The notes below the pieces were generated by a model. It saw only the letters and a program-made list of their open reading frames with translations. It made no database searches and was not told the DNA's origin. From NCBI GenBank assembly GCA_025200525.1, contig CM045763.1:157486246-157550245 (forward strand): 64,000 nucleotides of DNA, read 5' to 3'. Numbering within the stretch: position 1 is the stretch's first letter; every line of letters starts with the position of its first letter. Position numbers and translations under genes: made by a program. Of this stretch, positions 6,586 through 64,000 are shown one piece after another. This DNA comes from Camellia lanceoleosa. Its lineage: Eukaryota > Streptophyta > Magnoliopsida > Ericales > Theaceae.

Positions 6586-6597
6586 TTTTTAGTATAT

Positions 6598-8664: not shown

Positions 8665-8667
<3 letters not shown>

Positions 8668-8701: not shown

Positions 8702-8704
<3 letters not shown>

Positions 8705-9736: not shown

Positions 9737-9945
9737 TCGTTCTGTTGTGCTATAATAATGGGCCTAAGACCGTTTTGTATTTCATTGGGCCTAAGGCCGT
9801 TTTGCTATAATAATGGGCCTAAGGCCGTTTTGTATTCCGTTGGGCCCAAGGCTGTTTTGTTATAATAATGGGCCAAAGGCCGTTTTGTATTCTGTTGGGC
9901 GTAAGGCCGTTCAGTCTTATATGGGCCCGAGGCCGTTCAAAAAAG
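9737..9945. repeat. Minisatellite of GGCCTAAGGCC units in the LTR
   Basis: About seven units of 27-28 bp share TGGGCCTAAGGCCGTTTTG and alternate between TATTCCGT-like and CTATAATAA-like spacers. The core GGCCTAAGGCC is nearly self-complementary. The 3' LTR has fewer units (about 17735-17830), so copy number differs between the two LTRs. Confidence 0.85.
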
Positions 9946-10493: not shown

Positions 10494-10505
10494 TGGTATC
10501 AGAGC
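10494..10505 (+). other. Primer-binding site (tRNA-Met)
   Basis: TGGTATCAGAGC lies three bases after the 5' LTR. It is complementary to the 3' end of plant initiator tRNA-Met, the usual minus-strand primer for this group. A non-coding leader follows to the gag ATG at 10716. In the post-gap copy the site reads TGGTATCGAGC, with one base missing. Confidence 0.9.
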
Positions 10506-10715
10506 ACTTGTTGCTACCTTACACACGAGTTTATTGAGCTTTAGGGCGTTTGGAAAAGATTTAAGTTACATGCATGTGACTTTTGGTGCATACAAAATGA
10601 TATGTAACAGCTAGATTGTACATGCAATAATCACTGATATGTATTTTGGTAATGACTATGGTCCATGTCTACTTATGTATTTTTGTATGTGTTATAACTA
10701 ACTGTTATGTAGATC

Positions 10716-11275
10716 ATGGTGAGGACAAGAATAGACGATCTAGAATATTCCACCTCTGTACGGTTGGATAGGATAGAAATGATGATTATGGAGATGATAG
10801 AAACCTTGAGGCAACAACAGCAGCAGCAACAACCACCACTACCAGTACCCGTACCACTACCAGAGGTACAAGATTACCAAGCCGAGGATCGAACAATTAC
10901 CCTCACGAAGGAATTCAAAAAGATGAAGCCGCTCTCGTTCAAAGGGGGAATTAAACCAATGAAAGCAGAAGCGTGGGTGTTGGGTATAGAAAAGTTATTT
11001 GAGGTTTTTCTTTGTACTGAAGCCCAAAAAGTGCAACTTGCTGCCTTCACTCTTAAAGACAAAGCACGGAAGTGGTGGATGCTCACAAGAACTGCACATC
11101 AAGGGTTAACATGGGCTAGATTTTTGGAGCTGTTCTATGAAAAGTATTTCCTCCAATGTATGCGAGACAAGAAAGTGACCGAGTTTGAGACCTTGAGACA
11201 AGGGAACAGGACTGTTGCAGAGTATGAGGCGCAATTTGTTGAATTAGCCCATTTCACACCACATATGGTGGACAC
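10716..11275 (+). pseudogene. gag, N-terminal part (capsid region), interrupted
   Basis: This encodes the start of the retrotransposon structural protein. From the ATG at 10716 there is a basic and polar N terminus with a Gln run (about residues 32-38), then the retrotransposon gag fold signature: PLSFKGG, AEAWVLGIEKLF, ARKWW, TWARFLELFYEKYF and EYEAQFVELAHF. The frame runs straight into the hAT element at 11276 and stops inside it at 11549, so the open frame past 11275 is not gag. The net inserted length (862 bp) shifts the frame by one base, which is exactly the frame in which gag resumes at 12138. This indicates gag was open here when the insertion occurred. Confidence 0.88.
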
Positions 11276-12129
11276 TAGGAATGGCAATGAGTCGGGGTGG
11301 GGCAGGGGATCACATTTCCTGTCCCTGATCCCTGAAACTACAGAATTCCCCGTCCTCAGCCTCGATCCCCGGAGGGGAACCCATCACCCCCCACCACCAC
11401 CTCCTTACGGGAATCGGGTTTCCTCGACCTCGGAAAATCCTTGTAACTCATCATCAACAACATCATTCAGCAACATCATCAAAAAAATATATATATATAT
11501 ATCAACAACAACATCATCAACGGCGGCAACATTATCAAAAAATAAATAAAAAAATAAAAAATAGAGACACATCTGGCGGAAGAGGGACGAAATCGACGGT
11601 GGCGGTAGCAGAATCTTATCAAATCTGCCGTAGTAGAGGGAGGAAGAGGAGGCGAGAGGCGACGGAGTATAAAGGTTTGGCGATGGCCTGGCAGAGGAGG
11701 AGTCGACAGAGGAGGAGGCCGTGAGAGGCGATGGAGGAGGAGGAGAAGGAGGAAGAGGAAGAGGCGACGAGAGGCGGATGAGGCAACTGTGGAGAGAAGA
11801 AAGAGAGTGAGAGAGATAGATTAGAGAGTGAGGGTGAGATTGATGAGAGAGACAGATCAGATTGTACAGAGGGCGGTTATATATAAATGGATATAGGGAT
11901 ATTATGGTAATTTTACTTCAGGAAGAAACGGGGCCGAAGATGGGGACGAAGACGGGCCGGGGCCGGGGCCGGGGACGGGGACGGGCCGAAAGTGATCCCC
12001 GTCCCCAGCCCGAAACTGATAAAGGATTTAATTTTAAATACCATCCCCGGCCCGTCAGGGGTATTTTTTAGAAAAAAAAAAAACCACTCTTATTGGGGAC
12101 AGGGGGCCGGGTTCAAATTGCCATCCCTA
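11276..12129. mobile_element. Non-autonomous hAT element inserted in gag
   Basis: An 854-bp element starting TAGGAATGGCAAT and ending in the inverse of TAGGGATGGCAAT. It is flanked by 8-bp duplications GTGGACAC (11268-11275) and GTGGATAC (12130-12137). hAT elements make 8-bp target duplications and often have TAGGGATG-type ends. It is GC-rich against its surroundings, with GGGGACGGGG and CCCGTCCCC repeats near the ends and a GAGGAGG-rich middle. Open frames inside show no transposase, so it would need a transposase from elsewhere. The related copy at 59884-60670 lies at the same gag site in the duplicated segment. Confidence 0.9.
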
Positions 12130-12137
12130 GTGGATAC

Positions 12138-12618
12138 GAACTACAAGAAGGAAAGAAGGTTTGAAGGTGGATTACGAACTGCTATTCTCGACCGGATCAA
12201 TGTGCCGAAATTACCTACATATGTTGATGTGTTGGAAAGAGCAGTAATTGTTAAGGGTAATATTGCCGCTCAAAGCTGGGTCTCAGAATGGAAAAGGAAG
12301 AGACAGAATATCCAAGCCTTGAGGGGTTTAGTGGCACTACCGAGTAAGAAATTGAATTCGGGAACCTCTAGTACATCCGCTTCTACCCGTGACTCTACAC
12401 CAATTTGTCCTGATTGTGGAAAGAGACACCGTAGGATTTGTTATCGGGTAACAAGGGCATGCTTCAAGTGTGGCAAGGCATGTCATTTAGCCAGAGATTG
12501 CCCGCAAAAACATCGACATAATGGGAATAGAACTACCACAAGTTCAGTTGGTTCGACTCCAACCCCAACCATAAAGACAGCTACGAAACTCACCAATGCT
12601 AAAGATACTACTAAGTAG
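12138..12618 (+). pseudogene. gag, C-terminal part with CCHC zinc knuckle
   Basis: gag resumes after the hAT element with RRFEGGLRTAIL, then a charged linker and the nucleocapsid-type knuckle CFKCGKACHLARDC (12460-12501), spacing CX2CX4HX4C, which binds RNA. A second CPDCGKRH stretch lies just upstream. The frame closes at TAG 12616-12618. The protease frame continues in the same phase beyond it, so in this element the TAG probably breaks a single gag-pol frame. I cannot exclude that it is a natural gag terminator. Confidence 0.85.
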
Positions 12619-13101
12619 GGAAGAGTATTTACGCTAATTCCGAGGGACGTGCAAAATACCAAGACTGTGGTATCAGGTACATTCTCTGTTAATGGTTATT
12701 CCGCACATGTGTTATTTGATTCGGGCTCTACCCACTCCTTTGTATCAAAAGCATTTGCTAGTCATTTAAATAGGCCTATAGAGCCGCTACCTCATGTCTT
12801 GTGTGTATCTTTATCGTTAGGGGAGTCTATGGTATGTGCATCTATTTATTTTGTATGTGAAATCCTAATTGGGGATGTTCGGGTAGATGCCAATTTGTTA
12901 CCTCTTGATATGGCTTATTTTGACAAAATTTTGGGGATGGATTGGCTAAGCGAATGTCATGCAACTATTGATTGTGTCTTGAAACAAGTTACTTTCCAAC
13001 CCCCAGGACAGTTTGAGTTTATTTTCAAGGGGCAGAGAGTGATTTCCCCAACTTACCTGATTTCCGTAGTAAAGGCGTGTAAATTGTTACAAAAAGGCTG
13101 T
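12619..13101 (+). pseudogene. Retroviral-type aspartic protease (PR)
   Basis: A polyprotein-processing protease. The catalytic motif is LFDSGSTHSFVS (DSG at about 12718-12726), followed by the flap region and ILGMDWL near 12940, the usual C-terminal hallmark of Ty3/gypsy proteases. The frame ends at TAG 13102-13104. The following pol sequence is in another phase from about 13101, so this stop is produced by a one-base loss, not by a simple nonsense change. The same break is present at 61609 in the post-gap copy. Confidence 0.87.
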
Positions 13102-13106
13102 TAGGG

Positions 13107-14039
13107 TTTTTATGTAGTATTTTAGGTGGACAACCAGTGAATGGGGACATTGATGCAATTCTAATCGTTCGTGATTTTTCAGATGTTTTTCCAGAGGAAT
13201 TACCGGGGGAGTTAATTGATCACTAGATTGAGTTTACAATTGATATAGTGCCGGGAACTCAGCTCATTTCCAAAACTCCTTATAGAATGTCACTCATTGA
13301 AATGAAAGAATTAAAGGTCCAATTGCAAGACTTCCTCGACAAAGGGTTCTTTCACCTGAGCACTTCTCCTTCGGGCGCACCAGTCTTTTTTGTAAAAAAG
13401 AAAGATGGGACCCTTTGGTTGTATATGGATTATAGAGAGCTCAACGAAGTAATCATAGAGAATAAGTATCCTTTGCCTAGGATTGATGATTTATTCGATC
13501 AATTACAGGGTGCACAAGTCTTCTCTAAAATAGATTTGCGATCTGGGTATCACCAACAAAAAGTTAAAGCTGAAGATATCGAGAAAATTGCTTTCCGAAC
13601 CCGTTACGGACATTATGAATTTTTAGTTATGCCGTTTGGGGTTACCAATGCGCTAGCAGCCTTCATGGATCTAATGAACCAAGTTTTTAAGCCCTACCTG
13701 GATGACTTTGTGGTTGTGTTCATTGACGACATCCTCATTTACTTAACAAGTATGGAAGCCCATGAGAACCACCTACGGTTAATTCTTCAGACTCTTTGGG
13801 ATAAGAAACTATATGCAAAACTAAAGAAATATGAGTTTTGGCTACATGAAGTGGGATTTTTAGGACATGTAGTAATGAAGGAGGATGTTACTGTTGATCC
13901 GTACAAGATCGAAGCTATTGTGAATTGGCCGACTCTTACTAATGTGTCAAAAGTGCGTAGTTTCTTGGGTTTAGCGGGATATTACCGAAGATTCGTTAAA
14001 GACTTTTCCAAAATCGTTGTGCCGCTTACCCAGTTAACC
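13107..14039 (+). pseudogene. Reverse transcriptase (RT)
   Basis: An RNA- and DNA-dependent DNA polymerase domain of the pol polyprotein. In order: DVFPEELP upstream, [35 protein letters not shown] (catalytic Asp), MPFGVTNA and FIDDILIY (the catalytic DD pair in the plant Ty3/gypsy form of YxDD), then GFLGHVV and [18 protein letters not shown] in the connection. All catalytic residues are present. A TAG at 13224-13226 precedes the domain and another at 14040-14042 ends it. The longest ATG-initiated open stretch is 13248-14042, but that ATG is only an internal Met. Confidence 0.92.
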
Positions 14040-14042
14040 TAG

Positions 14043-14505
14043 AAAGGTGTTTTGTTTGAATAGTCGGAGCAACAAGAATCTGCCTTTCAAGAGTTGAAGA
14101 CGAGGTTAACTACAGCACCTGTTCTTGCCTTACCGTCTGGTATCGAGGGATTTGAGATTTATAGTGACGCTTCTTACAAAGGTTTGGGCTGTGTACTTAT
14201 GCAAAATGGGAGGGTTATTGCATATGCCTCTCGCCAACTTAAACCCCATGAAAGGAATTATCCCACACACGACATCGAACTAGCTACAGCGGTCTTTGCT
14301 TTGAAAATATGGCTCCATTATTTGTATGGAACTACTTGTGAAGTTTACACCGATCACAAGAGTCTTAAGTACTTCTTTACCCAAAAGGAGTTGAATATGC
14401 GACAAAGGCGGTGGTTAGAGCTCATTAAAGACTATGACTTACAAATCCATTATCACCCCGGTAAAGCTAACACGGTGGCAGATGCCCTTAGCCGAAAGGG
14501 TACGG
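14043..14505 (+). pseudogene. RNase H
   Basis: This domain degrades the RNA strand of the RNA:DNA hybrid. Catalytic positions visible are SDAS (Asp), HDIELA (Glu), [10 protein letters not shown] (Asp) and VADALSRK (Asp). It follows RT in the same frame. A TAG at 14061-14063 interrupts the joint with RT, where family members have a tryptophan codon (TGG), consistent with a single G-to-A change. Confidence 0.9.
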
Positions 14506-15503
14506 GGAATTTAGCAAGTTTGCTCACGAGGCAGAAAGAGCTGTTACGTGACTTGGAAATAATGAATGTGGGAATTGTGTTACATGGCCAAAATGCGAAA
14601 GTAGCAGCAATATCAGCTCAACCAACATTTATGGAAGAAATCAAGCAATGGCAACTTGAAGATGAATTTCTACAGAAAATTTGTGATGAAATGGAAACAA
14701 AGCCAAAGCCCGAGTTCCTGATTGAAAATTCAATACTGAAATTTCTAGGTAGATTGTGTGTTCCAAACGTGCCAGAAATCAAGAGAAGAATTATAGAGGA
14801 AGCACATAACTCCAAATTTGTGATGTATCCCGGTAACACGAAAATGTACCAAGATCTGAAGCATAATTTTTGGTGGCCTGGTATGAAGAGAGAAATTGCA
14901 GAATTTGTCTTAAAATGTTTACAATGTCAGCAAGTAAAAGTGGAGCACCAAAGACTAGCGGGTTTACTTCAACCTCTCCCAATTCCAAAATGAAAATGGA
15001 AACATTTAACTATGGATTTTATTGTGGGTTTACCGTGAATACCTCGGGGTATGAATTCCATATGGGTTATTGTTAATAGACTAACTATGTTAGCTCATTT
15101 TCTACCTGTAAAGACTTAATACAATGCAGACAAGCTAGCTACCGTATATATGGATGAAATTGTACGACTACATGGTGTTCCAGTTTCAATCGTGTCCGAT
15201 AGAGATCCAAAGTTCGTATCAAGATTTTGGCGAAGTTTGCAGGATGTTTTGGGAACAAAATTGAAATTCAATACAGCCTTCCACCCTCAAACAGATGGAC
15301 AATCTTAGAGAACCATACAAACGTTGGAGGATATGCTTCGAATGTGTGCTTTAGACTTCAAAGGAAGTTGGGAAACTTATCTACCGTTGGCAGAGTTTGC
15401 GTACACCAACAGTTACCACTCAAGTATAAGAATGGCACCCTACGAAGCTTTATATGGAAAGAAATGTCGCTCTCTCATGTGCTAGACTGAAGTCGATGAT
15501 AAA
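14506..15503 (+). pseudogene. Integrase (IN), catalytically destroyed
   Basis: It would insert the cDNA into the genome. The N-terminal zinc domain has EAHNSKF then MYPGNTK then CLQC. The second zinc-binding His is replaced by Tyr in MYPG (about 14824). The core has MDFIVGLP (first Asp) and VSDRDPKF (second Asp). Thirty-five residues after that Asp, the position of the catalytic Glu is a TAG codon (15306-15308). Further in-frame stops are TGA 14991, TGA 15036, TAA 15117 and TAG 15483. The frame is otherwise unbroken. The same stops occur in the post-gap copy. Confidence 0.9.
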
Positions 15504-16055
15504 TTGTTGTTTGGACCCGAGATTGTTCAATTGACAACAGAGAAAATTAAAACTATCCAAGAAAGGTTAAAGACCGTGCAGAGTAAACAAAAGAGTTGTG
15601 TAGACCACCGGCAAAGGGATTTAAAATTTGAAGTGGGTAATCATGTTTTTGTGAAAGTGATACCAATAAAGGGACACTCAAGATTTGGCAAAAAAGGTAA
15701 GTTAACACCCCGATACGTTGGTTTGTTTCAAATCCTGGAAAGAGTGGGTCCAGTAGCCTATCAGGTTGCTCTTCCGCCAAATATAGAGCAAGTGCATAAC
15801 GTGTTTCATGTATCAATGTTACGAGGTTATCTTCAAGACCCGTCCCATATTATAGACTATCAACAAATTGCCCTGGATGATAATTTGATTTATGAAGAGA
15901 AACCAATTCAGATTTTAGACCGGCAAATGAAGCAACTACGAAGTAAAGTGATCCCAATGGTGAAAGTGGAATGGCAAGAACATTATGGGAAAGAAGCTAC
16001 TTGGGAGAGAGAGAAGGAAATGAGGCAACGGTACCCAGAATTATTTTCAACCTAA
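15504..16055 (+). pseudogene. Integrase C-terminal region with chromodomain-like tail
   Basis: 183 open codons in the same phase as integrase. They contain the GPY/F-type region (GKLTPRYVGLFQILERVG, then VAYQVALPP and VHNVFHVSMLR) and end with ILDRQMKQLRSK, VKVEWQEHYGKEATWE and RYPELF. The last part resembles the chromodomain of plant chromoviruses, which targets integration to particular chromatin. The natural stop TAA is at 16053-16055, 45 bp before the 3' LTR. Confidence 0.85.
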
Positions 16056-16087
16056 GGTAAAACAAGTTTGAGGGACCAAACTTCTTT

Positions 16088-16100
16088 AAGGGGGGGAGAG
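16088..16100 (+). other. Polypurine tract
   Basis: AAGGGGGGGAGAG lies directly against the first base of the 3' LTR, where plus-strand DNA synthesis is primed. Confidence 0.88.
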
Positions 16101-16481
16101 TGTAATAACCTGACCCTCTTATATGCTTTACATCTCTAGTTATATGAGTAATTACATGTTTAATGTGAAATTCCATGTGGAGTTATGCTTACATACATGA
16201 ATTATTTAATTATGACATTCTATTTGTTGGTTATTGGAGAAAATCTGTTAAAATTAAAAGCCTTAGGGGCGCGATAACCTGAAATTGACTTTACATTTGT
16301 GATTAGCATAATTTTTGGGACATAATATAAATTTTCGCGAAAATCTGATTCATAATGAATTAATTGATGTAATTTAGGCCCATTACCTTAACTAAAGAGC
16401 CTTAGTAGATATGAGAAATATATGGATGGCTCTAGATGACTTAGTGGAAGCAACTCTACATACCTCTTGATAGAGAATTTT

Positions 16482-16534
<53 letters not shown>

Positions 16535-18390
16535 GAAAAGGTCAAACTAGACTTGGAGATTGAAGAAGCTGCTAGGGGAATTTGAGGAATACAACTTAAA
16601 GTGAGTATAGATCACTAGTAAACTCTCAATTTCTCTTCAATTGGCTTGAATTGAGCTTTGAAATGAAGCATCATCCATGAAAAACTAGGGTTATTATTGT
16701 GAATAATTAAATCTCATAAATGATCATGTATCTCTTGGATATGTGTGATGGAAAACTTAATCTCTTTATGTTATGTTGATTTGCTTTGAATTGAGAGAAA
16801 TTGTGCCTAATCTCACCCTTTTGCAGGCTTGAACTCATGTAAAAATGGATACATATGTATATGTATACATACCTACATAAAGAGAATAAGGGAATCATGG
16901 AAATTAGAGGTGTAAAGGCCCAATTAAAACAAGTCTTGATCTTAATGGGCTAGAATTTCATGTTTATGTGCTTATATGTTATGTTTTTAAAGTAAATTTC
17001 ACTTGATTTTGGCTATGTAACTATTCTCGCAAGCTTTTGAATTGTTGAAGTTTTACGTAAAAACAATAGCCAAAACTGCACGTGCAGGGATCACAGCTGC
17101 ACGTGCAGTAAATAGGGGTGAAGGACTGATTTACACTGCAATAAAATAGGGGTGAAGGACTGATTTACAGAAAAACAAGAGCCAGAACCGCACGTGTAGG
17201 GCTCACAGCTGCATGTGCGGGAGCATCGCCGCACGTGTGGAGATCATAACCGCACGTGCGGAAAACAGAGGTGAAGGACTTATCTACACTTAAATAAAAG
17301 CACGTGCGGGCCGCACGTGCGGTGAGGACTTCCGCACGTGCGACTAAAGCTGGAGAATTCTGTTCATTTCTTTCACTCTGTTTGACCCTCAAAATGTGTT
17401 AATATGTCCATTTGATGTTTCTATAATGCATTTAATTACATGGAATTTAGCGAATCAAACATTTGAGAAATAAGAGAAAACTAAGGAAAAGTGAGGTACT
17501 TACAAGTTGTGTGCTATGTGTAGGGCACATACTAGACCATCGTTCATCCAAGATCACAAAGGAGTGATAGTAGTATAATGACATATTTCTTGTATTCATA
17601 TATGTTATGCAATACTTAATTCACTCTTTTAGTTAATGACTTATGTTATATGAGTTATCTTTGATGGAGCAATTGGAATGATTGAACAAAGGGCATATGA
17701 GATATGGATCCGAGGTCATTCTCACAGTTATAATAATGGGCCTAAGGCCGTTTTATTCCGCTGGGCCCAAGGCCATTTTATATTCCGCTGGGCCTAAGGT
17801 CGCTCTCTTATGTGGGCTCGAGGTCATTCAGAAAAAGAAATAAGAATAAGACCAACTTGTGATTTACGAATATGCACTGCTAATTATGCTCGTACTCTTA
17901 ATCTGTTTGTGTTGCTATCATTCACTGAGCTTTGCTCACTCCATTTTTATGGATGTTTTATAGGTAAACAGCCTGCGGGACAACCTTAGGTCAACGCAGG
18001 AGCCTTTTGCTGGACCCGTTTTGCTGAGTCACCCGAAGTGACTCTTTTGTTTTACTTTTGGGAAATCCATATAATGACATGTTTTGTCGATTTTTGTTTG
18101 GGGAAATAGACTCATATATATATATATATATATATACCTTCAATACTTAACTTTTGGGTTGTTACCCTTTTACAAATTCAATGAATATGAATGGTGTATG
18201 GAATGTTAAGTGCTTATGCATGGTAATGCATTAAGATCCTGGCTTTTAGACACAGCTCAATAAATGTTTTATTCTGCTATTATTTTGCTTCCGTTCAAGC
18301 TCCAATATTGAGTAATTTACGATAACAAAGTTGAGGCCTAAGGTCAAGCCGGTCATGTCAAAACTTTTAGAGGCAGATTTGGGTTGTGAC
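16101..18390 (+). repeat. 3' LTR of the Ty3/gypsy element
   Basis: 2,290 bp from TGTAATAACC to TTGTGAC, followed by GGAAC. Against the 5' LTR it carries scattered substitutions, a deletion of about 25 bp near 16255, a longer GA run (16484-16531), an extra segment around 17105-17300 with more CACGTG units, and fewer minisatellite units. Several independent changes between the two LTRs show the insertion is not very recent. I did not compute a divergence. Confidence 0.92.
17079..17340. promoter_or_regulatory. Expanded cluster of eight CACGTG palindromes in the 3' LTR
   Basis: CACGTG occurs at 17079, 17100, 17191, 17232, 17253, 17301, 17314 and 17335, with one near-copy GCATGTGC at about 17211. 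The growth from five to eight comes with a repeated AATAGGGGTGAAGGACTGAT segment (17107 and 17147), so a local duplication enlarged the array after integration or in the parent copy. Confidence 0.6.
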
Positions 18391-50521: not shown

Positions 50522-50621
50522 NNNNNNNNNNNNNNNNNNNNNNNNNNNNNNNNNNNNNNNNNNNNNNNNNNNNNNNNNNNNNNNNNNNNNNNNNNNNNNN
50601 NNNNNNNNNNNNNNNNNNNNN
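50522..50621. other. Assembly gap of exactly 100 N
   Basis: A run of 100 N is the usual placeholder for a scaffold join of unknown size. The sequence to its right repeats 1854 onward, so the join may place a second haplotype or an unresolved repeat next to its own copy. Confidence 0.97.
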
Positions 50622-50702
50622 CAATTTATGAAAATGGTTAAATAGCTAGTGCAATGATAGAATGACTTGGGATGTAGATCACCTGTATATGTACTCTCGT
50701 AT

Positions 50703-53255
50703 CTAAATCGCTCCTTGCATGTTTTCTTGTTGCACGCCCATCTTCCCACATCGGGTCTAATCAATACGCTGTAATCACCTCCCCTAGATGGAATCCTTTT
50801 CTCCGCCTCGGCCTCCTGTGATCGCCCACAAATGGCGGTGCTATGGAGGTGGTAACTGCATGTATGGCGGGTTTCAACTGTTGAATAGGGTGAATGGACT
50901 TAATATGATGCTAACTTGGAACATGGTAATAAGGTTCACGGAATCACATATATTTCTTCCGCTATTCCGGGAATGACACTCATTGTACGTGAACAGCAAA
51001 CCCATTCCACCGCCATCGCATAACATTAACAAGAATACCGCTGACGCCAACCAAAACCGGCGGATGCGAGTGCACTTACACACATTATCGCTTAGCTGGC
51101 TTAGCAATCCATGGCCCGCCGTTTTGTACCGCCTCCACTTCTTCACTTTTGAGAGTTGTCAACCCATTTGTTACCTTTCACCGCAAGGCTTGACATTTGC
51201 TCCAAGGTTTGTCCCTAATAGCATCAAATCAACCCAGCGTAATAAAGAAGCGGTGTGCTTTCGTATCCAAGACAATTGATTTGCCAGTCATTGACTTAAT
51301 ATCTCCCCGTAATGCCTACTAACGCCCACAACACAATCAACTGCAAATATTGCGGGTGTTGGAAAAAAATAAAATAACCTAATAATTAAAAAGACGTCTG
51401 TATTCAAGATTATTCAATGTTTGATCCAAATCTTTCGTAATCGCCAATAACAAATACCTGGATTACACAATTTCAAGACCTCAATCTTTCCGTTGAAGTA
51501 AGCTGATTTGAAAAGATTTATTATCTGCCAAGAATTTATGAGCGAGTCCTAATTTCGCCCCAGATTGACGATTTATCTTGCTTTCAAATCTATTTGAAGA
51601 TGTATGAGGCAAAACGCATGATGTTAATAATGGAAAACTTTGACATGGATTGTAACAACCCAATGTGACAATGTAAACAAATGTCAAATTCACCATGATC
51701 AACAACCCGGCTAATCGCTGCACCACTCCCGCTTTGTTATGTCGCCAATCAACAATGGCAACGCGACTGGAACAAACTCACATGGCGATTAGTATATGCA
51801 TGTATAAAAAATACCACTCATATCCACAATAAACCCCAATAAAATTTAGCACACCAAACCGAGGAAAACAACAACAAAAAAGAAATGGAAGAGTACAGAC
51901 AGCAGGCGAATAAAACAAACTATGTATAAAGTTTCCCACAAACCACCGCAATTAAACCCCCACGTAAGACCGAATTTAAAAAGAAAACCCCATTCAAGAC
52001 TGTTGGAATGTCGCATAGATTGTGACACATAAAGCAATATGTATATGTATATATGCATTATATACAACCCATCCGTCATCACCCCATGACACATTACCCT
52101 TATTTGAAATAATATTTAAAGACAAAGTAGCAGATTTTTCGAATGTAACAAAGCGAATACAAAAACATATTACCTTCGTCTTCATCCTTCCGCAAAGAGT
52201 CATAAGTAAATTCCTCAACCGGCTTCGAGAAATGTAAAAAAATTGCCAAGAAAGAAGTCAACGAGACAACGCTGAATCCATTTATGCTTAACGATATGAA
52301 CACTAACAAATCTCCGCTTGGTCGCTAAAATTCGAGGTTGATATAGTCATTGCTATTTTCCATCATAGCATCGCATTCATCTAAGCCGACATCGAAGGAA
52401 ACAAAGATGGTCACCATATACTTCACCATTGTTACCACTGCCGAAGCAACACGGTGAATCATTATCTGTTACAATCGCTTTTTCAAAACTAAAATAACGT
52501 CAAGGCCGTGTTAACGTCGAGCACGCATTACGTATCCGCAAATAACATTTGCCACCAAATCGACTCCAGATGCCGGTTCGGACATACGAATCCGGCAGCA
52601 CTACATACGGTACACTTAAACCTTCGCATAAAACACTTATGATGCGAACACTCGGCATGTAATTTACCAAGAATAGCCTGCTGGACCTCGCAGAACTTAC
52701 AAACAACAGAACACGATCAATCATCTTCACGATTTGGAATCGAAACCACTCGACAACAGAGCCGGAAGCGACGGACCAAATTATCGTACCCCACCAAGAA
52801 ACATCGACCACATTTGTAACGCCGCTGCCCACCCGGTGACGACAGGGTGTCTCAACGGCGCTTATAGTCATTTATTGTAATACATCCGGCCCGCCATCCA
52901 ACTCAACATTCCATAACCTCGGCCTTGTCGTACAGAAAGTTAAAGGCCATAGGCTAACACCGCTTCCAAAGATTGCCCCCGCCTCTACTGTGAATTGCAC
53001 GGCATCGACATGATCGAATGCCAAAAACTCAAGAGAAAACATTCCAACATCCTCATCGCATAAGACATGAACTTGTTATATCCAGAACTTCAATGAATAA
53101 TATGACCATCTCTTTGAGTTCAAAGTTTCTAAAACTTCCTCAGATATCCCATCGACAAATCCGGACCAACGGTAAGCAGATAAAGATTTAACGATTTTGA
53201 GTCTGCTCATTCTGCAGAAGAACATAATATTTCACAAGACTTATCTCAGCTCTTA
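50703..53255 (-). pseudogene. MULE transposase pseudogene, copy 2, heavily frameshifted
   Basis: The counterpart of 1937-4567, with the same domain order recognisable at DNA level: knuckle and SWIM end near 50700-51000, core near 51000-52300, N-terminal region near 52400-53255. Frequent small indels leave only short open pieces, none longer than about 120 codons, so it cannot encode a transposase. Whether the indels are real mutations or consensus errors cannot be decided from the sequence alone. The mosaic pattern suggests many are errors. Confidence 0.8.
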
Positions 53256-54102
53256 ATAATAAAAAATCTCCTCATAATTAGAAATTGGAGAGTTGCAAGA
53301 TTCTGCACGTACAATCTCAAGCGTTGACCTCAAATAATCTAATAGAGGAATGAACAAACTTACAAAAAAATATTCAAAAAACCCTATGCAAAACATCCAC
53401 GGAGATGAAACAAAGTCCTCAGAATCATCTAACTAAACACTCTGAACAGTTTTAGCATATATATCGCTCTGCCAAATGTAAGTACATCAAAGAACTCCAA
53501 CAACCATGGAATCCAAACATAAGAAGGATAGAAACAAACCAAATGATACCAAATCAAATACAAATATTCCAAATAATTCCAAAATAGGACTGGATTGCCC
53601 ATAAGAAAACATTAAGACTAATTGAAGCAACAGCCTAATAATTAGGGGATTTATCAGTAACTTTTCCTATATATATATTGTAAAAAATAAATAATTAGTA
53701 TGATTTTAATAATGTTTTAAAAAACAATTAGGACCCTGCTCATAGAGGCAAATATCAAATTAACTTGATTTTTTTTTATATAAATGATAAGCGTTGTTGA
53801 CAAATTCTACGGGTTCTTCAATCGGACTTTCATGCTGCATAGGGACAATAGTAATGCCAAATCAACAGAGTGATAGTAAACATTGCCAAAGTCTTGCTTT
53901 TTCATTAGTTTTTATTTATTTAATAATGTCATGATAATTATATTTATTATTATTCTACATATTATCATACTAGATTATATAATTTAATGAATTACACCTA
54001 TGTTAGGTATTTAATGTGTAGGAATAATATACAGGATAAAAAAATATAAATGAAGTATCATAATTTGGCTATTTATTTGTTTATTATTTGGGTATGAATG
54101 TA

Positions 54103-54421
54103 GAGTTTTTTTTTTTAATATTTTCTAAAAAAAAATAATAGAGCAAAGGACAATTTTTAAAATTATTTAGAAAATCCAACCTAATTTTTAAAAATCGCAT
54201 TTTGAAAATGTAATTTTAAATTGAAAATGTAATATATCTTGTGTGAAATTATATAAAATTGTATTTTCAACATACAATTTCTGCTAGCATCGCATGTTGA
54301 AAATGTAATTTTAATTTAAAATTATATTTTCAAATGTGGATAAAGTGCATCAATTTTCAAAAGTTTGAAAAGTGAATCAATTTCCTAAATTATTATTTTT
54401 TTAAAATATTAAAAAAAACTC
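54103..54421. mobile_element. MITE, copy 2
   Basis: The counterpart of 5421-5757, again preceded by ATGAATGTA (54094-54102). It is shortened by several small deletions, and the right flank ATGAACGCA is altered. Confidence 0.72.
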
Positions 54422-54734
54422 ATGAACGCAAGATACATTACATTTCTGTTTGTCCCTGTTCTTTATTCTCTACTTCATCTTAGCCCTACAAAACAAACAC
54501 GGTTCAACTCATCTAAAAAAGTCTTGGAAAATTTCTAAGTGACTAATTTTAAATTGCCATTAAGCTTTTCCGTATTTTCCCATTCAATAATTCCGTCTTA
54601 AAGTTATCCGTAACAACTATTTATACTATTTCTATTTTATTTACTTTAGTGAGTTTTATCACTACCCATTAACTCATTCCACAAACAAATGCTTTATTTA
54701 TTTTATCTCTCCTTAGTATTTTTTTTTTCAAGGA

Positions 54735-55908
54735 ATAATACCATGGTACATCATAAAAAGATATTCAATTATATAAGTTATAAATATCGGCAGATTTGAC
54801 TATCACAAATGTCATAATTCAATACTCGTTATCAAGAGTTATAACTTCTCAAAAAAAAGAAGAAGTTATAATCAAATATCATTTAAGATATATAATCAAA
54901 GAACTCTTAAGTCATAACCACAAATAATGTCATAAATCCAATTACTATAATAAAACACAAAAGACATAAATCTTAAGAGTGCATATGGTAAACCCAATAG
55001 GAATTTTTCATTTTTAAAGACCATGTAGTACACCAAAAATTAAGAATTATATCAAGACTCCAATTTTCATAATAGTGTAATAGATTACAAAATATTGATT
55101 TAAGATTGTGTTTGAATCTTAAATTGTATGCAGAGAAAATTTTTAGAAGAGAAAATAAAATGAAATGAAAAAGAGAAACAAAGTGGAAGAATTTTTAATC
55201 TTTTTTCTTTTTCTTCTTTTACAAATTCTTTTCATAAATTTAGCATTTAAATGGTCAATTTTTTAGTATATATCATACCACCTGCCCTAAGGTTTGGAGA
55301 GAAAAATGTAATTAGTCCCACACTTCGTCATGTTATAGTTGACTCTCCTTTCAATATGCTTAAAATCACTTAAAATGCAAATGATGGATAGACATTGAAA
55401 TGTGAAATAAAAGATATGTACATATTTTAGTTAAAAATAAAATACATTATTTTTTCATTTATAATGACTCACAAAAAAAGTATGAAAAGACGAATCATGA
55501 TGTAACCAAAACCCATGAAGACTAGTATAATTGTATCAAAAATGTAAAAAATAATTGGATTTCTTCCAAACCCCCCAAGCGAGAGTGAGTATAATTTAAC
55601 CCCGCCACCCCTCTTTTCTTTTTTTGATGTGTTTCTAGATTTGAAAGTATTAATTTTGCAAAAATCATTGAGTTGAATAGTCGAGTAACATGGGTAGTAA
55701 TATTTATAATCCATATATCTTGTATATTGCACACATTACCATCAACAATGACTTGTGTGGGACAGAAGAGGTGATTGTTCCCACATGATTTAAAAATTTT
55801 TTTGTTATTATAATATATTATTATACAATTTCTAAATTCATAAAGGTTCCTTTTTTTTTTTGCAAATTTTAAATGGTTTATTCTTCATTTTTTTTAAAAA
55901 AAAAAATT
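54735..55908. repeat. Repeat block X, left part, in copy 2
   Basis: Collinear with 6085-7235, including both hairpin modules, with many short indels. Non-coding. Confidence 0.72.
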
Positions 55909-56863
55909 GGGTAAATTATATTGACACTTTCCGGGGAGGCTTATATTTATTACAGCTTCTCCTCATATTTTGAAATTACATCCCTCTCGATTTGTTTAAT
56001 ACGACATTCTCAACACTTAATTTTTAAATACCAATTTTTCTCAATCGATAAATTACATTGATACTTAGATTGTTTTCCTCTGTTTAATATATTACCAATT
56101 GTCCCTCGTTAGTATTAGTTGAAAAAATAAATTGAAAAAAAATTAATTGAAAAAAATTAATTAAAAATTTGTTCATCAAATTTAAATTGCTAAAAACTAA
56201 ATGTCAGAATTATTTTTGAATTTATGTTTTTCTTTCCAAATTTATAAAACTAAACAACTATTATAAAACCAAAAAAATTATCAATCAAGTTTTATGACTT
56301 TTTAAAAATTTTTGTAAGTATAAATTAAAAACTTAAAAATCTAAATGGTTACCAAAACAAAATTGGTGAAAATGTTGTTAATTAATAAATAATTAAAGGT
56401 TACCAACGTAAGAAATGACTTATCAAAAAGATTCTTAGGCTATGTATGGTTTGATTTTTGAAATTTTTTTAAAAATTAAAAATTAATTGGTTAAGAAATA
56501 AAAAAATAAAATAATTATCATTTTTATATAATTTTATTTTTCAATGTAATAAACATAAACTCAAGGGTGTCAGTAATTTTATCGTTTATGTTGGTTTAAA
56601 CTAGAAATTTAAAATTTTGACTAACAAATTTTTTTTTCAATTAATTTATTTTCAACTAATACTAACCGAGGTGGGCAATTGGTAACGCTTAATTAAACCT
56701 TGGGAAGTGGATTGTAATTTCCTAAAATGTGAGGGTGTTAATGTAATTTACTGTAAAGAGGGCAAAATTGGTTATTTAAAAAAATTTAATTGCTAGGAGC
56801 AATCAGTAATAAACTTAAAGCCTTAGGGAATGTAATTTCCAAAAGGCGTGGAGGAGGCGTAAC
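55909..56863. mobile_element. Fold-back element, left part, in copy 2
   Basis: It starts GGGTAAATTATATTGACAC after an A-run and is collinear with 7236-8261 up to the LTR. The same retrotransposon interrupts it at the same point, so both copies descend from one insertion event or are one locus assembled twice. Confidence 0.72.
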
Positions 56864-59118
56864 GTAATAAATTCTCTCTCTTATATGCTTTTACATCTCT
56901 AGTTTTTATATGAGTAATTACATTATTTAATGTAAGAAATTCCATGTGGAGTTGTGCTTTCATCATGAATTATTTGATTATGACATTCTATCTATTGGGG
57001 TTATTAGGAGAAAAATCTGTTTAAAATTAAGACGTTTTTGACTATGAAATTGAAGAAAGCCTTAGAGGCGCGATAACTTGAAAATTGACTTTGACATTTG
57101 TAATTAGCATAATTTTTAGGACATAATATAAATTTCGGTCATAAAAATTTAATTCAGAATAGCAATTAATTTGATGAAATTTAGGCCCATTACCTTAACT
57201 AAAAGAGCCTTAGTAGATATAAAGAAATATATGGATGACTCTACAGATGACTTAGTGGAAGCAACTCTACATATCTTCATGACAGAGAATTTTGAAGAAG
57301 AGAGTATAAGAGAGCAGAGAGAGAGAGAGAGGAACAAAGAAAAGGTCAAACTAGACTTGGACATTGAAGAAGAAATTTGCTAGGAATTTGAGTGAATACA
57401 ACTTAAAGTGAGTATAGATCACTAGTAAACTCTCAATTTCTCTTCAATTGGCTTGAATTGAGCTTTGAAGTGAAGCATCATCCATGAAAAACTAGGGTTA
57501 TTATTGTGAATAATTAAATCTCATAAATGATCATGTATCTCTTGGATATGTGTGATGGAAAACTTGATCTCTTTTATGTTATGTTGATTTGCTTTGAATT
57601 GAGAGAAATTGTGCCTAATCTCACCCTTTTGCGGGAGGCTTGAACTCATGTAAAATGGATACATATGTATATGTATACATACCTACATAAAGAGAATAAG
57701 GAATCATGGAAATTAGAGGTGTAAAAGGCCCAATTAAAACAAGTCTTGATCTTAATGGGCTAGAATTTCATGTTTATGTGCTTATATGTTATGTTTTTAA
57801 AAGTAAATTTCACTTGATTTTGGCTATGTAACTATTCCTAGCAAGCTTTGGATTGTTGAAGTTTCGGACAGAAAAACAATAGTAAAACCGCATGAATCTT
57901 GAGGATCTGCGATGCAAAAAATAGGGGTGAATGACTGATTTACACCTTAATAAAGACGCGGCCCATTGCGACGGCGGGGGACTTTACGTCAGACTAAAAT
58001 GGAGAATTACATTCATTTCTTTCGCTCTGTTTGACCCTCAGAATGTGTTAATATATCCATTTGATCTTTCTATAATGCATTTAATTACACAGAATTTAGT
58101 GAATCGAATAGTTGAGATATAAGAGGAAACAAAGGAAAAGTGAGGTACTTACGAGTTGTGCGCTATGTGTAGGGCACATATAGGAGGGGACTATCGTTCA
58201 TCCGCATCACAGTGAATGATAGTAGTATAATGACATATTTCTTGTATTCATACATGTTATGCAATACTTAATTCACTCTTTTAGTAAATGACTTATGTTA
58301 TATGAGTTATGTTTGATGGAGCAATTGGAATGATTGAACATTGACATATGAGATATGAACCCAAGGTCGTTCTGTTGTGCTATAATAATGGGCCTAAGAC
58401 CGTTTTGTATTTCATTGGGCCTAAGGCCGTTTTGCTATAATAATGGGCCTAAGGCCGTTTTGTATAAGTTGGGCCCAAGGTTTTGTTATAATAATGGGCC
58501 AAAGGCAGTTTTATTCTGTTGAAGGCGTGGCGGATTCGGTCTTATATGGGCCCGAGGCCGTTCAAAAAAGGAAATAAGAATAAGACCAACTTGTGATTTA
58601 CGAATATGCACTGCTGATTATATTCGTACTCTTAATCTGTTTGTGTTGCTATCATTCACTGAGCCTTGCTCACTCCATTTTTATGGATGTTTTGTAGGTA
58701 ATCATCCCGCGGGACAACCTTAGGTCAGCCCATGAGCCTTTTGCTGGACCCGTTTTGCTGAGTCACCTGAAGTGACTCTTTTGTTTTACTTTTGCGAAAT
58801 CCATATAATGGCATGTTTTGTCGATTTTTGTTTGGGGAAATAGACTCATATATATATATATATATATATCGTCAATACTTAACTTTTGAGTTGTTACCCT
58901 TTTACAAATTCAATGAATATGAATGGTGTATGGAATGTTATGTATTTATGCATGGTGATGCGTTAAGATCCTGGCTTTTAGACAAAGCTCAATGAATGTT
59001 TTATTCTGCTATTATTTTGCATCTGTTAGCCCCAATATTGAGTAATTTAAGACAACAAAGTTGAGGCCTAAGGTCGGGTGGTCATTTCCAAACTTTTAGA
59101 GGTAGGTTTGGGTCGTGG
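56864..59118 (+). repeat. 5' LTR, copy 2
   Basis: Collinear with 8262-10490. The region of the five CACGTG palindromes (57885-57990) is scrambled and keeps none of them, while both neighbouring stretches are near-identical to copy 1. The minisatellite is also disturbed (58460-58550). The primer site reads TGGTATCGAGC. Confidence 0.82.
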
Positions 59119-59340
59119 TTAATTGGTATCGAGCACTTGTTGCTACCTTACACACGAGTTTATTGAGCTTTAGGCGTTTGGAAAAGATTTAAGTTACATG
59201 CATGTGACTTTTGGTGCATACAAAATGATATGTAACTAGATTGTACATGCAATAATCAGCGATATGTATTTTGGTAATGACTATGGTCCATGTCTACTTA
59301 TGTATTTTGTATGTGTTATAACTAAGCTGTTATGTAGATC

Positions 59341-59875
59341 ATGGTGAGGACAAGAATAGACGATCTAGAATATTCCACCTACATGCGGTTGGATAGGATA
59401 GAAAGGATGATTATGGAGATGATAGAAACCTTGAGGCAACAACGGCTGACAACAACCACCACTACCGATGCATTCACTACCAGAGGTACAAGATTATAGC
59501 CGAGGATCGAACAATTACCCTCACGAAGAATTCAAAAAGATGAAGCAGCTCTCGTTCAAAGGGAATTAAACCAATGAAAGCGAAGCGTGGGTGTTGGGTA
59601 TAGAAAAGTTATTTGAGGTTTTCTTTGTCTTTGAAGCCCAAAAAGTGCAACTAGCCTTCACTCTTAAAGACAAAAGCGGAAGTGGTGGATGCTCACAAGA
59701 AGCGCACATCAAGGGTTAACATGGGCTAGATTTTTGGCCGTTCTATGAAAAGTATTTCCTCCAATGTATGCTTGAGACAAGAAAGTGACCGAGTTTGAGA
59801 CCTTGAGACAAGGAGCAGATCACATTGCAGTATGAGGCGCAATTTGTTGAATTAGCCCATTTCACACCACATATG
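59341..59875 (+). pseudogene. gag, N-terminal part, copy 2, frameshifted
   Basis: It starts ATGGTGAGGACAAGAATAG like copy 1. The Gln run and several later sites carry small deletions, so no continuous frame exists. The region just before the hAT element (about 59825-59883) is again close to copy 1. Confidence 0.75.
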
Positions 59876-59883
59876 GTGGACAC

Positions 59884-60670
59884 TAGGAATGGCAATGAGT
59901 CGGGGTGGGGCAGGGGATCACATTTCCTGTCCCTGATCCCTGAAACTACAGAATTCCCCGTCCTCAGCCTCGATCCCCGGAGGGGAACCCATCACCCCCC
60001 ACCACCACCTCCTTACGGGAATCGGGTTTCCTCGACCTCGGAAAATCCTTGTAACTCATCATCAACAACATCATTTAGCAACATCATCAAAAAAAAATAT
60101 ATATATATATCAACAACAACATCATCAACGGCGGCAACATTATCAAAAAATAAATAAAAAAATAAAAAATAGAGACACATCTGGCGGAAGAGGGACGAAA
60201 TCGGTGGCGATAGAATCTTATCAAATCTGCCGTAGTAGAGGAGGAAGAGGAGGCGTGAGTATAAAGGTTTAGCGATGGCTGGCAGAGGAGGAGTCGGCGA
60301 GGAGGAGGCCGTGAGAGGCGATGGAGGAGGAGGAGGAAGGAGGAAGAGGAGGCGAGGCGGATGAGGCAAGCGTGGAGAGAAGAAAGAGTGAGAGAGATAG
60401 ATTAGAGAGTGAGGTGAGATTGATGAGAGAGGCGGTCGGATTGCACAGAGGGCGGTTATATATAAATGGATATAGGGATATTATGGTAATTTTACTTGGG
60501 AAGAAGCGGGCGAAGATGGGACGAAAACGGTAGGGGGACGGGACGGGCGAAAGTGATCCGTCCCACCAAACCGATAAAGGATTTAATTTTAAATACCATC
60601 CGGCCGTCAGGTATTTTTAGAAAAAAAAAAACCACTCTTATTGGGGACGGGGGGTTCAAGTGCCATCCTA
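59884..60670. mobile_element. Non-autonomous hAT element, copy 2
   Basis: At the same gag position as 11276-12129, with GTGGACAC on the left (59876-59883) and GTGGATCT on the right (60671-60678). It is 787 bp. The first 300 bp are nearly identical to copy 1, and the GC-rich right half has lost many bases. Confidence 0.82.
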
Positions 60671-60678
60671 GTGGATCT

Positions 60679-61134
60679 GAACTACAAGAAGGAAAGAAGG
60701 TTTGAAGGTGGATTCTGTTGCTATTCTCGGAGGATCAATGTAAATTACCTACATATGTTGATGTGTTGGAAAGAGCGATTGTTAAGGGTAATATTGCTCA
60801 AAAGTGGGTCTCGAATGGAAAAGGAAGAGCAGAATATCCAAGCCTTGAGGGTTTTGAGTGGCACTACCGAGTAAGAAATTGAATTCGGGAACCTCTAGTA
60901 CATCCGCTTACCCGTGACTCTACACCAATTTGTCCTGATTGTGGAAAGAGACACCGTAGGATTTGTTATCGGGTAACAAGGGCATGCTTCAAGTGTGGCA
61001 AGGCATGTCATTTAGCAGATTGCATAAAAACATCGACATAATGGGAATAGAACTACCACAAGTTAGGTTGGTTCGACTCAACCCCAACCATAAAGACGAC
61101 TGAAACTCACCAATGCTAAAGATACTACTAAGTA
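60679..61134 (+). pseudogene. gag, C-terminal part, copy 2, frameshifted
   Basis: The zinc-knuckle DNA (ACATGCTTCAAGTGTGGCAA in copy 1) is preserved up to CATTTAG, after which bases are missing, so the last Cys of the knuckle is out of frame. Several other small indels occur. Confidence 0.7.
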
Positions 61135-61608
61135 GGGAAGAGTATTCACGCTAATTAGAGGGACGTGCAAAATACCAAGACTGTGGTATCAGGTACATTC
61201 TCTGTTAATGGTTATTCCGCACATGTGTTATTTGATTCGGGCTCTACCCACTCCTTTGTATCAAAAGCATTTGCTAGTCATTTAAATAGGCCTATAGAGC
61301 CGCTACCTCATGTCTTGTGTGTATCTTTATCGTTAGGGGAGTCTATGGTATGTGCATCTATTTATTTTGTATGTGAAATCCTAATTGGGGATGTTCGGGT
61401 AGATGCCAATTTGTTACCTCTTGATATGGCTTATTTTGACAAAATTTTGGGGATGGATTGGCTAAGCGAATGTCATGCAACTATTGATTGTGTGTTGAAA
61501 CAAGTTACTTTCCAACCCCCAGGACAGTTTGAGTTTATTTTCAAGGGCGGTGATTTCAACTTACGATTTCGTAGTAAAAGGCGTGTAAATTGTTACAAAA
61601 AAATCTGT
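61135..61608 (+). pseudogene. Aspartic protease, copy 2
   Basis: LFDSGSTHSFVS and ILGMDWL are present. The DNA is almost identical to copy 1 up to about 61540, then has indels (GGGCGGTGATTTCAACTTAC) that change the last residues. It ends at TAG 61609-61611. Confidence 0.85.
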
Positions 61609-61614
61609 TAGGGT

Positions 61615-62541
61615 TTTTATGTAGTATTTTAGGTGGACAACGGTGAATGGGGACATTGATGCAATTCTAATCGTTAAGTGATTTTTCGGATGTTTTCGGA
61701 GGAATTCCGGGAGTTAATTGATCACTAGATTGAGTTTACAATTGATATAGTGCCGGGAACTCAGCTCATTTCCAAAACTCCTTATAGAATGTCACTCATT
61801 GAAATGAAAGAATTAAAGGTCCAATTGCAAGACTTCCTCGACAAAGGGTTCTTTCACCTGAGCACTTCTCCTTCGGGCGCACCAGTCTTTTTTGTAAAAA
61901 AGAAAGATGGGACCCTTTGGTTGTATATGGATTATAGAGAGCTCAACGAAGTAATCATAGAGAATAAGTATCCTTTGCTTAGGATTGATGATTTATTCGA
62001 TCAATTACAGGGTGCACAAGTCTTCTCTAAAATAGATTTGCGATCTGGGTATCACCAACAAAAAGTTAAAGCTGAAGATATCGAGAAAATTGCTTTCCGA
62101 ACCCGTTACGGACATTATGAATTTTTAGTTATGTCGTTTGGGGTTACCAATGCGCTAGCAGCCTTCATGGATCTAATGAACCAAGTTTTTAAGCCCTACC
62201 TGGATGACTTTGTGGTTGTGTTCATTGACGACATCCTCATTTACTTAACAAGTATGGAAGCGCATGAGAACCACCTACGGTTAATTCTTCAGACTCTTTG
62301 GGATAAGAAACTATATGCAAAACTAAAGAAATATGAGTTTTGGCTACATGAAGTGGGATTTTTAGGACATGTAGTAATGAAGGAGGATGTTACTGTTGAT
62401 CCGTACAAGATCGAAGCTATTGTGAATTGGCCGACTCTTACTAATGTGTCAAAAGTGCGTAGTTTCTTGGGTTTAGCGGGATATTACCGAAGATTCGTTA
62501 AAGACTTTTCCAAAATCGTTGTGCCGCTTACCCAGTTAACC
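61615..62541 (+). pseudogene. Reverse transcriptase, copy 2
   Basis: Nearly identical to copy 1 over about 61730-62541, with [10 protein letters not shown] and FIDDILIY present. Two C-to-T changes alter conserved prolines: PLPRIDD becomes PLLRIDD, and MPFG becomes MSFG. It ends at TAG 62542-62544, as in copy 1. The segment 61615-61730 carries extra indels. Confidence 0.88.
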
Positions 62542-62544
62542 TAG

Positions 62545-62975
62545 AAAGGTGTTTTGTTTGAATAGTCGGAGCAACAAGAATCTGCCTTTCAAGAGTTGAA
62601 GACGAGGTTAACTACAGCACCTGTTCTTGCCTTACCGTCTGGTATCGAGGGATTTGAGATTTATAGTGACGCTTCTTACAAAGGTTTGGGTACGTGTACT
62701 TATGCAAAATGGGAGGTTATTGCATATGCCTCTCAACTTAAACCCCATGAAAGGAATTATCCCACACGACATCGAACTAGCTTCTGGCGGTCTTTGCTTT
62801 GAAAATATGGCTCCATTATTTGTATGGAACTACTTGTGAAGTTTACGATCACAAGAGTCTTAAGTACTTCTTTACCCAAAAGGAGTTGAATATCGACAAA
62901 AGCGGTGGTTAGAGCTCATTAAAGACTATGACTTACAAATCCATTATCACCGGTAAAAGCTAACACGGCGAGATG
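62545..62975 (+). pseudogene. RNase H, copy 2, frameshifted
   Basis: SDAS is present in frame, but small indels after about 62690 (GGGTACGTGTACTT, TCTCAACTTAA, CACACGACATC, TTTACGATCAC) break the frame several times, so the remaining catalytic positions are in different phases. Confidence 0.8.
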
Positions 62976-64000
62976 CCCTTAGCGAAAAGAATGCAGAATT
63001 TAGCAAGTTTGCTCACGAGGCAGAAAGAGCTGTTACGTGACTTGGAAATAATGAATGTGGGAATTGTGTTACATGGCCAAAATGCGAAAGTAGCAGCAAT
63101 ATCAGCTCAACCAACATTTATGGAAGAAATCAAGCAATGGCAACTTGAAGATGAATTTCTACAGAAAATTTGTGATGAAATGGAAACAAAGCCAAAGCCC
63201 GAGTTCCTGATTGAAAATTCAGTACTGAAATTTCTAGGTAGATTGTGTGTTCCAAACGTGCCAGAAATCAAGAGAAGAATTATAGAGGAAGCACATAACT
63301 CCAAATTTGTGATGTATCCCGGTAACACGAAAATGTACCAAGATCTGAAGCATAATTTTTGGTGGCCTGGTATGAAGAGAGAAATTGCAGAATTTGTCTT
63401 AAAATGTTTACAATGTCAGCAAGTAAAAGTGGAGCACCAAAGACTAGCGGGTTTACTTCAACCTCTCCCAATTCCAAAATGAAAATGGAAACATTTAACT
63501 ATGGATTTTATTGTGGGTTTACCGTGAATACCTCGGGGTATGAATTCCATATGGGTTATTGTTAATAGACTAACTATGTTAGCTCATTTTCTACCTGTAA
63601 AGACTTAATACAATGCAGACAAGCTAGCTACCGTATATATGGATGAAATTGTACGACTACATGGTGTTCCAGTTTCAATCGTGTCCGATAGAGATCCAAA
63701 GTTCGTATCAAGATTTTGGCGAAGTTTGCAGGATGTTTTGGGAACAAAATTGAAATTCAATACAGTCTTCCACCCTCAAACAGATGGACAATCTTAGAGA
63801 ACCATACAAACGTTGGAGGATATGCTTCGAATGTGTGCTTTAGACTTCAAAGGAAGTTGGGAAACTTATCTACCGTTGGCAGAGTTTGCGTACACCAACA
63901 GTTACCACTCAAGTATAAGAATGGCACCCTACGAAGCTTTATATGGAAAGAAATGTCGCTCTCTCATGTGCTAGACTGAAGTCGATGATAAATTGTTGTT
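62976..64000 (+). pseudogene. Integrase, copy 2, truncated by the window edge
   Basis: Almost identical to copy 1 (14510-15511). The same MYPG substitution affects the zinc domain, and the same in-frame stops occur, including TAG at the position of the catalytic Glu (about 63795-63797). Rare substitutions only, for example ACAGTCTTCC for ACAGCCTTCC. Confidence 0.88.

What the first reader, a model, noticed from the sequence alone, without database searches (positions are those of the whole stretch)
50522..64000. Probable false duplication or unpolished haplotig after a 100-N gap
The 13.4 kb after the gap repeats 1854-15511 with the same nested insertions. The differences are not spread evenly: blocks of several hundred bp are nearly perfect, and adjacent blocks have an indel of 1-5 bp every few tens of bases. 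Random mutation of a real duplicate favours substitutions and even spacing. The pattern fits an error-prone long-read consensus polished only in part, or a second haplotype placed beside the first. Any gene count or copy number taken from this window is affected.
Basis: partly seen in the sequence, partly recalled or inferred. Interest (0 to 1): 0.75.

Follow-up and report, generated by a model that had tools for sequence, protein, structure and literature searches.

The report
Badly read contig end, duplicated falsely
The second copy of this stretch of plant (camellia-like) DNA looks like the poorly read end of an assembled piece placed next to a good version of the same locus, so its hundreds of differences are most likely sequencing errors, not biology.

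Summary
Observation confirmed. The 13,379 bases after the 100-N gap (copy B, 50622-64000) repeat 1854-15511 (copy A) end to end.

B is the wrong copy:
- 801 indels to 359 substitutions; 12 natural repeat pairs show 1.4-7 substitutions per indel.
- B carries the excess indels in 5 of 5 outgroup comparisons.
- Of seven transposon frames open in A, B keeps one whole, one nearly, and breaks five.
- 120 of 120 listed relatives of one MULE frame, 115 of them Camellia, match A better.
- C/T mismatches exceed A/G 155 to 67; natural pairs 139 to 136. Nanopore reads show such strand asymmetry (PMC8486125).

Best reading: B's tip is near-raw read sequence of a locus already present in contig A, so probably an unmerged overlap (false duplication). 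Whether B is the same or the other haplotype, or a real duplicate under noise, needs reads. Interest low.

The parts
50522..50621 (.). 100-N scaffold gap; left contig ends at 50521, right contig begins at 50622
1854..15511 (+). Copy A: accurate version of the locus (MULE fragments plus nested LTR retrotransposon)
   Evidence: open reading frames, closer to outgroup repeats, 120 of 120 listed relatives prefer it
50622..64000 (+). Copy B: start of the right-hand contig, error-laden version of copy A, reaching the window's edge
50622..57393 (+). Noisy tip of copy B (matches A 1854-8756): 921 difference events in 6,903 bp of A, C/T mismatches 136 v A/G 40
57394..62995 (+). Mosaic zone of copy B: near-clean islands (0.3-1.6% events) alternating with noisy blocks (6-22%)
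   Evidence: two-state segmentation with parameters set by hand
62996..64000 (+). Clean end of copy B within the window: 2 differences in 1,008 bp of A (14504-15511)
2273..3064 (-). MULE transposase fragment, open in A; counterpart 51026-51782 in B broken (longest open stretch 98 aa against 263)
3620..4573 (-). MuDR-type DNA-binding transposase fragment, open in A; counterpart 52325-53250 in B has 126 frameshifting indels
8262..18390 (+). LTR retrotransposon of Ty3/gypsy type nested in the locus, 5-bp target-site duplication GGAAC at 8257-8261 and 18391-18395; LTRs about 8262-10490 and 16100-18390. Copy B holds its counterpart only up to A 15511
   Evidence: boundaries read; gag, protease, RT, RNase H, integrase zinc-binding and SH3 domains (chromo and zinc knuckle below cut-off)
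61729..62544 (+). Reverse transcriptase frame in copy B, the only one of seven frames compared that stays fully open (271 aa, 3 substitutions)

Best explanation
Copy B is the low-coverage left tip of a long-read contig. Near its edge the consensus rests on one or very few error-prone reads, probably nanopore reads from the minus strand. Further in, coverage rises and polishing worked, first in islands where the draft was good enough or the transposon family abundant enough for reads to map, then throughout. The same locus is already present, well read, inside the left-hand contig from 1854 on. The assembler or scaffolder did not recognise the overlap and joined the two contigs with a nominal 100-N gap, so the locus is counted twice. 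Shown here: the homology, the decline from the gap, the error-like spectrum, that B is the altered copy, and that homology starts exactly at the gap. Inferred: the read depth, the platform, the polishing history, and that B goes on past 64,000 as a copy of 15,512-50,521. This statement leaves open which haplotype B comes from; the first rival is the other-haplotype case and overlaps with it.
For: Homology begins at the first base after the gap. Difference events per 250 bp fall with distance from the gap (rho -0.87; -0.86 to -0.87 under 5 of 5 scoring schemes); an exponential fit gives about 22 per 100 bp at the edge and a decay length of 5.8 kb. Substitutions per indel 0.45, against 1.39-7.00 in 12 natural repeat pairs, some of which share a member; the A/B ratio is 3.8-7.0 times below the pooled ratio of five natural pairs in 5 of 5 schemes. 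Relative-rate test: B-to-outgroup indels exceed A-to-outgroup indels in 5 of 5 comparisons (54 v 9, 98 v 16, 79 v 15, 33 v 15, 12 v 7), while substitutions differ little (38 v 31, 71 v 71, 68 v 56, 44 v 47, 46 v 49). Frames: of 7 frames open in A, RT is intact in B, protease nearly (150 of 161 aa), 5 are broken; 293 frameshifting against 28 in-frame indels. 120 of 120 listed relatives score better on A. C/T mismatches 155 v A/G 67; six natural pairs 139 v 136. PMC8486125 (section 17 read) reports A/G errors 3-5 times transversions and C/T only a bit raised when reads are kept on their own strand. 20 of 20 simulated uniform duplicates gave rho between -0.28 and 0.36 and C/T to A/G between 0.79 and 1.05. 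PMC9516828 (passages) lists a gap between the pair and very low depth among the marks of false duplication.
Against: The error rate peaks 2-2.5 kb in, not at the very edge. 1-bp deletions are not enriched in homopolymers (111 of 268 in runs of 2 or more = 41%, against 53% of all positions), although homopolymers cause about 47% of nanopore errors in PMC8486125 (passages). PMC7671305 (passages) reports both A/G and C/T raised in nanopore reads, without the strand asymmetry; PMC8486125 suspects strand handling behind such results. The platform is therefore not settled. No reads were available, so depth is inferred. The right contig was seen only to 64,000, so overlap with 15,512-50,521 is untested. 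The whole-assembly search did not complete 8 of 8 times.
Confidence: 0.85

Rival explanations
1. Heterotype false duplication: copy B is the other haplotype of a heterozygous plant, assembled as a separate contig and placed beside the first, with a badly polished tip. (A sub-case of the best explanation that differs only in the haplotype, so the two confidences overlap.)
For: Camellia-type genome. Indel-free tracts over 200 bp hold 13 substitutions in 3,416 bp (0.38%), which could be allelic. In the table of PMC9516828 (passages) heterotype exceeds homotype in 5 of 6 assemblies.
Against: Most differences in the noisy part cannot be allelic: decline from the edge, indel excess, broken frames. 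The clean-tract divergence is low and may itself be residual error or cross-polishing from paralogues.
Confidence: 0.35
2. Real recent tandem duplication of at least the 48.7 kb from 1854 to 50521, whose second copy was assembled badly at its left end.
For: The noise alone does not exclude that a real second copy lies underneath. Both copies share the nested LTR insertion as far as seen.
Against: Homology starts exactly at the contig's first base, which a real duplicate gives only if its junction lies in the gap. The gap lies between the two copies, a listed mark of false duplication. There is no spanning evidence.
Confidence: 0.08
3. Old real duplication that diverged by mutation with gene conversion keeping some blocks identical.
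For: Near-identical blocks alternate with divergent ones.
Against: The excess indels are on B's side; indels outnumber substitutions more than twofold, unlike 12 of 12 natural pairs; decline from the gap; strand-asymmetric mismatches; 0 of 20 simulated uniform duplicates resemble it (conversion itself was not simulated).
Confidence: 0.02

Closest known systems
Homotype false duplication (Vertebrate Genomes Project usage; PMC9516828, passages)
   Same: Near-identical pair on one scaffold with an assembly gap between the copies; one copy loaded with error-like differences.
   Different: Read depth and k-mer multiplicity, which define it there, could not be measured. Here the error shows a clear decline away from the contig edge.
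Heterotype false duplication / haplotig (PMC9516828, passages)
   Same: An allelic contig beside its partner would give the same layout.
   Different: Most differences here are error-like, not heterozygous variants.
Raw nanopore read error profile (PMC7671305, passages; PMC8486125, passages and section 17)
   Same: Similar numbers of substitutions, insertions and deletions near the edge (197:170:228 events in 1854-5500; published averages 4.33, 3.69, 4.54%), raised transitions, asymmetry by strand.
   Different: No homopolymer enrichment of 1-bp deletions. The substitution share depends on the alignment scoring.

Membership tests
Homotype false duplication | Gap between the duplicated pair on the same scaffold | tested here: met
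   100-N gap at 50522-50621, between the copies and adjoining copy B
Homotype false duplication | Very low read depth over the false copy | not testable with these tools
   no reads held
Homotype false duplication | Sequencing-error k-mers, no heterozygous k-mers | not testable with these tools
   no reads held; error-like spectrum shown indirectly
Heterotype false duplication | Single-copy k-mers at above-error depth in both copies | not testable with these tools
   no reads held; indel-free tracts over 200 bp differ at 13 of 3,416 bp
Unmerged contig overlap | Homology begins at the contig's first base | tested here: met
   50622 aligns with 1854
Unmerged contig overlap | Homology continues to the end of the other contig | tested here: inconclusive
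   holds to the window's edge (15511/64000); beyond is not in the window and the genome search did not complete (8 calls)
Nanopore raw-read consensus | Transitions raised, one strand's pair dominating | tested here: met
   noisy tip C/T 136, A/G 40, about 27 per pair of transversion types; PMC8486125 section 17
Nanopore raw-read consensus | Deletions concentrated in homopolymers | tested here: not met
   41% of 268 1-bp deletions in runs of 2 or more v 53% of positions

The most novel reading that the evidence does not exclude
A true, very recent tandem duplication of about 49 kb or more in a Camellia-type genome, carrying the nested MULE and LTR element twice, hidden under a badly read contig tip.
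Probability: 0.08. Interest if true: 0.25.

Novelty: not a real feature. Interest (0 to 1): 0.12.

Why it matters
It matters for anyone using this assembly. Gene, transposon and LTR-age counts from the window would be inflated or distorted, and copy B's broken frames would be misread as pseudogenes. The diagnostic itself can be reused without reads: a difference rate that falls away from a gap, indels exceeding substitutions, strand-asymmetric transitions, and polarisation by internal repeats.

Tried and rejected
MAFFT alignment of the two copies and MAFFT triads appeared to turn neighbouring indels into substitutions. The triads gave B-private v A-private substitutions 232 v 26, insertions 47 v 1, deletions 21 v 6 summed over four of the five triads (the second outgroup for one stretch left out): the same direction (B altered), but a different mix, where substitutions differ little. 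The main counts come from an affine global alignment. The A/B substitution:indel value moves from 0.10 to 1.25 with the scoring; the contrast with natural pairs and the decline from the gap persist in 5 of 5 scorings.

A search for signs of noise at the left contig's right end gave nothing usable. Of the reading frames of 70 aa or more in 18.4-50.5 kb (45 printed) I gave ten to Pfam (the 8 longest and two near 46 kb): 0 of 10 matched, so there was no coding yardstick. Repeat pairs with one member at 46.4-48.7 kb have somewhat low substitution:indel ratios (1.39-2.46), but I had no outgroup to polarise them. Rfam (gathering threshold) and tRNA scans of the window gave 0 hits.

The exact species was not identified. 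The best protein hit is 89% identical to a Camellia fascicularis protein. One published nanopore plus Hi-C Camellia assembly corrected with Racon and Pilon exists (PMC9539759, passages), but nothing ties the window to it. Paper searches were seen as listings; only PMC9516828, PMC8486125, PMC7671305 and PMC9539759 were opened, as passages, plus section 17 of PMC8486125.

Full report
Observation. The window has one N run, 50522-50621, and the sequence after it (copy B, 50622-64000) aligns end to end with 1854-15511 (copy A) on the same strand. An affine global alignment gives 359 substitutions, 333 insertions in B and 468 deletions in B. Copy A holds fragments of a MULE transposase (Pfam MULE, Transposase_mut, DBD_Tnp_Mut) and a nested Ty3/gypsy-type LTR retrotransposon with gag, protease, RT, RNase H, integrase zinc-binding and Tf2-type SH3 domains. 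The element is flanked by the 5-bp repeat GGAAC at 8257-8261 and 18391-18395. Copy B contains the same nesting as far as the window goes.

Decline from the gap. Differences are not merely patchy. Counted per 250 bp they number 28-57 in the first 3 kb (34 in the first bin, peak 57 about 2.4 kb in) and 0-1 in the last four bins; Spearman -0.87, and -0.86 to -0.87 in 5 of 5 alignment scorings. A two-state segmentation with hand-set parameters gives one unbroken noisy block (A 1854-8756, 13.3% events), then alternating clean and noisy blocks, then 1,008 bp with 2 differences. The longest event-free stretch is 544 bp; 2000 uniform simulations never exceeded 160. A decline anchored on a contig's first bases is expected of falling read depth at a contig tip and has no evident reason to exist in an evolving duplicate.

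Spectrum. Indels outnumber substitutions 801 to 359 (0.45 substitutions per indel), whereas 12 natural repeat pairs of the window, some sharing a member, show 1.39 to 7.00 when aligned the same way. The absolute A/B ratio depends on scoring (0.10-1.25), but the pooled value of five natural pairs stays 3.8-7.0 times higher. Mismatches are strand-asymmetric: C/T 155, A/G 67, against 139 and 136 pooled over six natural pairs. The asymmetry sits in the noisy tip (136 v 40) and is gone beyond it (19 v 27). PMC8486125 (section 17 read) reports that nanopore substitutions, kept on the read's own strand, are mainly A/G, with C/T only a bit raised; C/T on the plus strand would therefore mean a minus-strand read. 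PMC7671305 (passages) finds both kinds of transition raised in nanopore reads, gives averages of 4.33% substitutions, 3.69% insertions and 4.54% deletions, and insertion-heavy errors for PacBio; the tip (A 1854-5500) has 197, 170 and 228 events. Against nanopore, 1-bp deletions are depleted, not enriched, in homopolymers (41% v 53%). Nanopore is favoured but not established.

Which copy is wrong. Five comparisons with internal outgroup repeats show the excess indels on B's side every time (A v B to outgroup: 9 v 54, 16 v 98, 15 v 79, 15 v 33, 7 v 12), with substitutions little changed (31 v 38, 71 v 71, 56 v 68, 47 v 44, 49 v 46). Two of the five use overlapping stretches of A with different outgroups. 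Seven reading frames open in A have 293 frameshifting and 28 in-frame indels in B: RT survives whole, protease nearly (150 of 161 aa), five are broken. All 120 scored higher on A than on B, the best one matching A over its length at 89% identity and B only as a 35% fragment. The perfect (AG)17 array of A is broken in B.

Interpretation. B's tip is near-raw read sequence. The island pattern fits polishing that could start only where the draft was already good or the repeat family abundant; that is inference. In indel-free tracts over 200 bp B differs from A by 13 substitutions in 3,416 bp (0.38%), well below the divergence between the two LTRs of the same element (3.0, 7.9 and 8.8% in three parts). 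Underneath the noise the two copies are thus nearly identical, unless cross-polishing made them so. Together with homology starting exactly at the gap, and a gap between the pair being a listed mark of false duplication (PMC9516828, passages), the simplest account is an unmerged overlap of two contigs. Same haplotype or other haplotype cannot be told, and a true recent duplication under the noise is unlikely but open, because reads were not available and the assembly search did not complete in 8 of 8 tries.

Verdict. It is an assembly artefact of a known kind; interest is low outside quality control.

Noticed in passing
27837-30910 and 41646-45132: Three inverted matches in mirrored order (81, 76 and 73% identity: 29498-30910, 28768-29469 and 27837-28447 against 43061-41646, 43750-43049 and 45132-44525) form a diverged large inverted structure inside the left contig.
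   Followed up: no
35873-39146 and 46448-48655: Three diverged direct matches (81-87% identity) in the same order, 9.4-10.6 kb apart, near the left contig's right end.
   Followed up: partly
18439-25572: Cluster of related direct repeats (19946-21660 with 22974-24696; 18622 with 21035 and 24075) that also match 6076-7233, plus tandem arrays of 31-211 bp units at 22296-22827 and 24758-25572.
   Followed up: partly
7270-7513 and 8029-8269: Inverted repeat of about 245 bp (86% identity) whose right arm ends at the retrotransposon's insertion site; 7234-7281 also matches 18440-18392 reversed, and the target word recurs with one mismatch at 7270-7282, suggesting that the LTR element landed in the end of a small inverted-repeat element.
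   Followed up: partly
window: Host looks like a Camellia-type plant: the best relative of one MULE frame is 89% identical to a Camellia fascicularis protein and 115 of 120 listed hits are Camellia; species not identified.
   Followed up: partly
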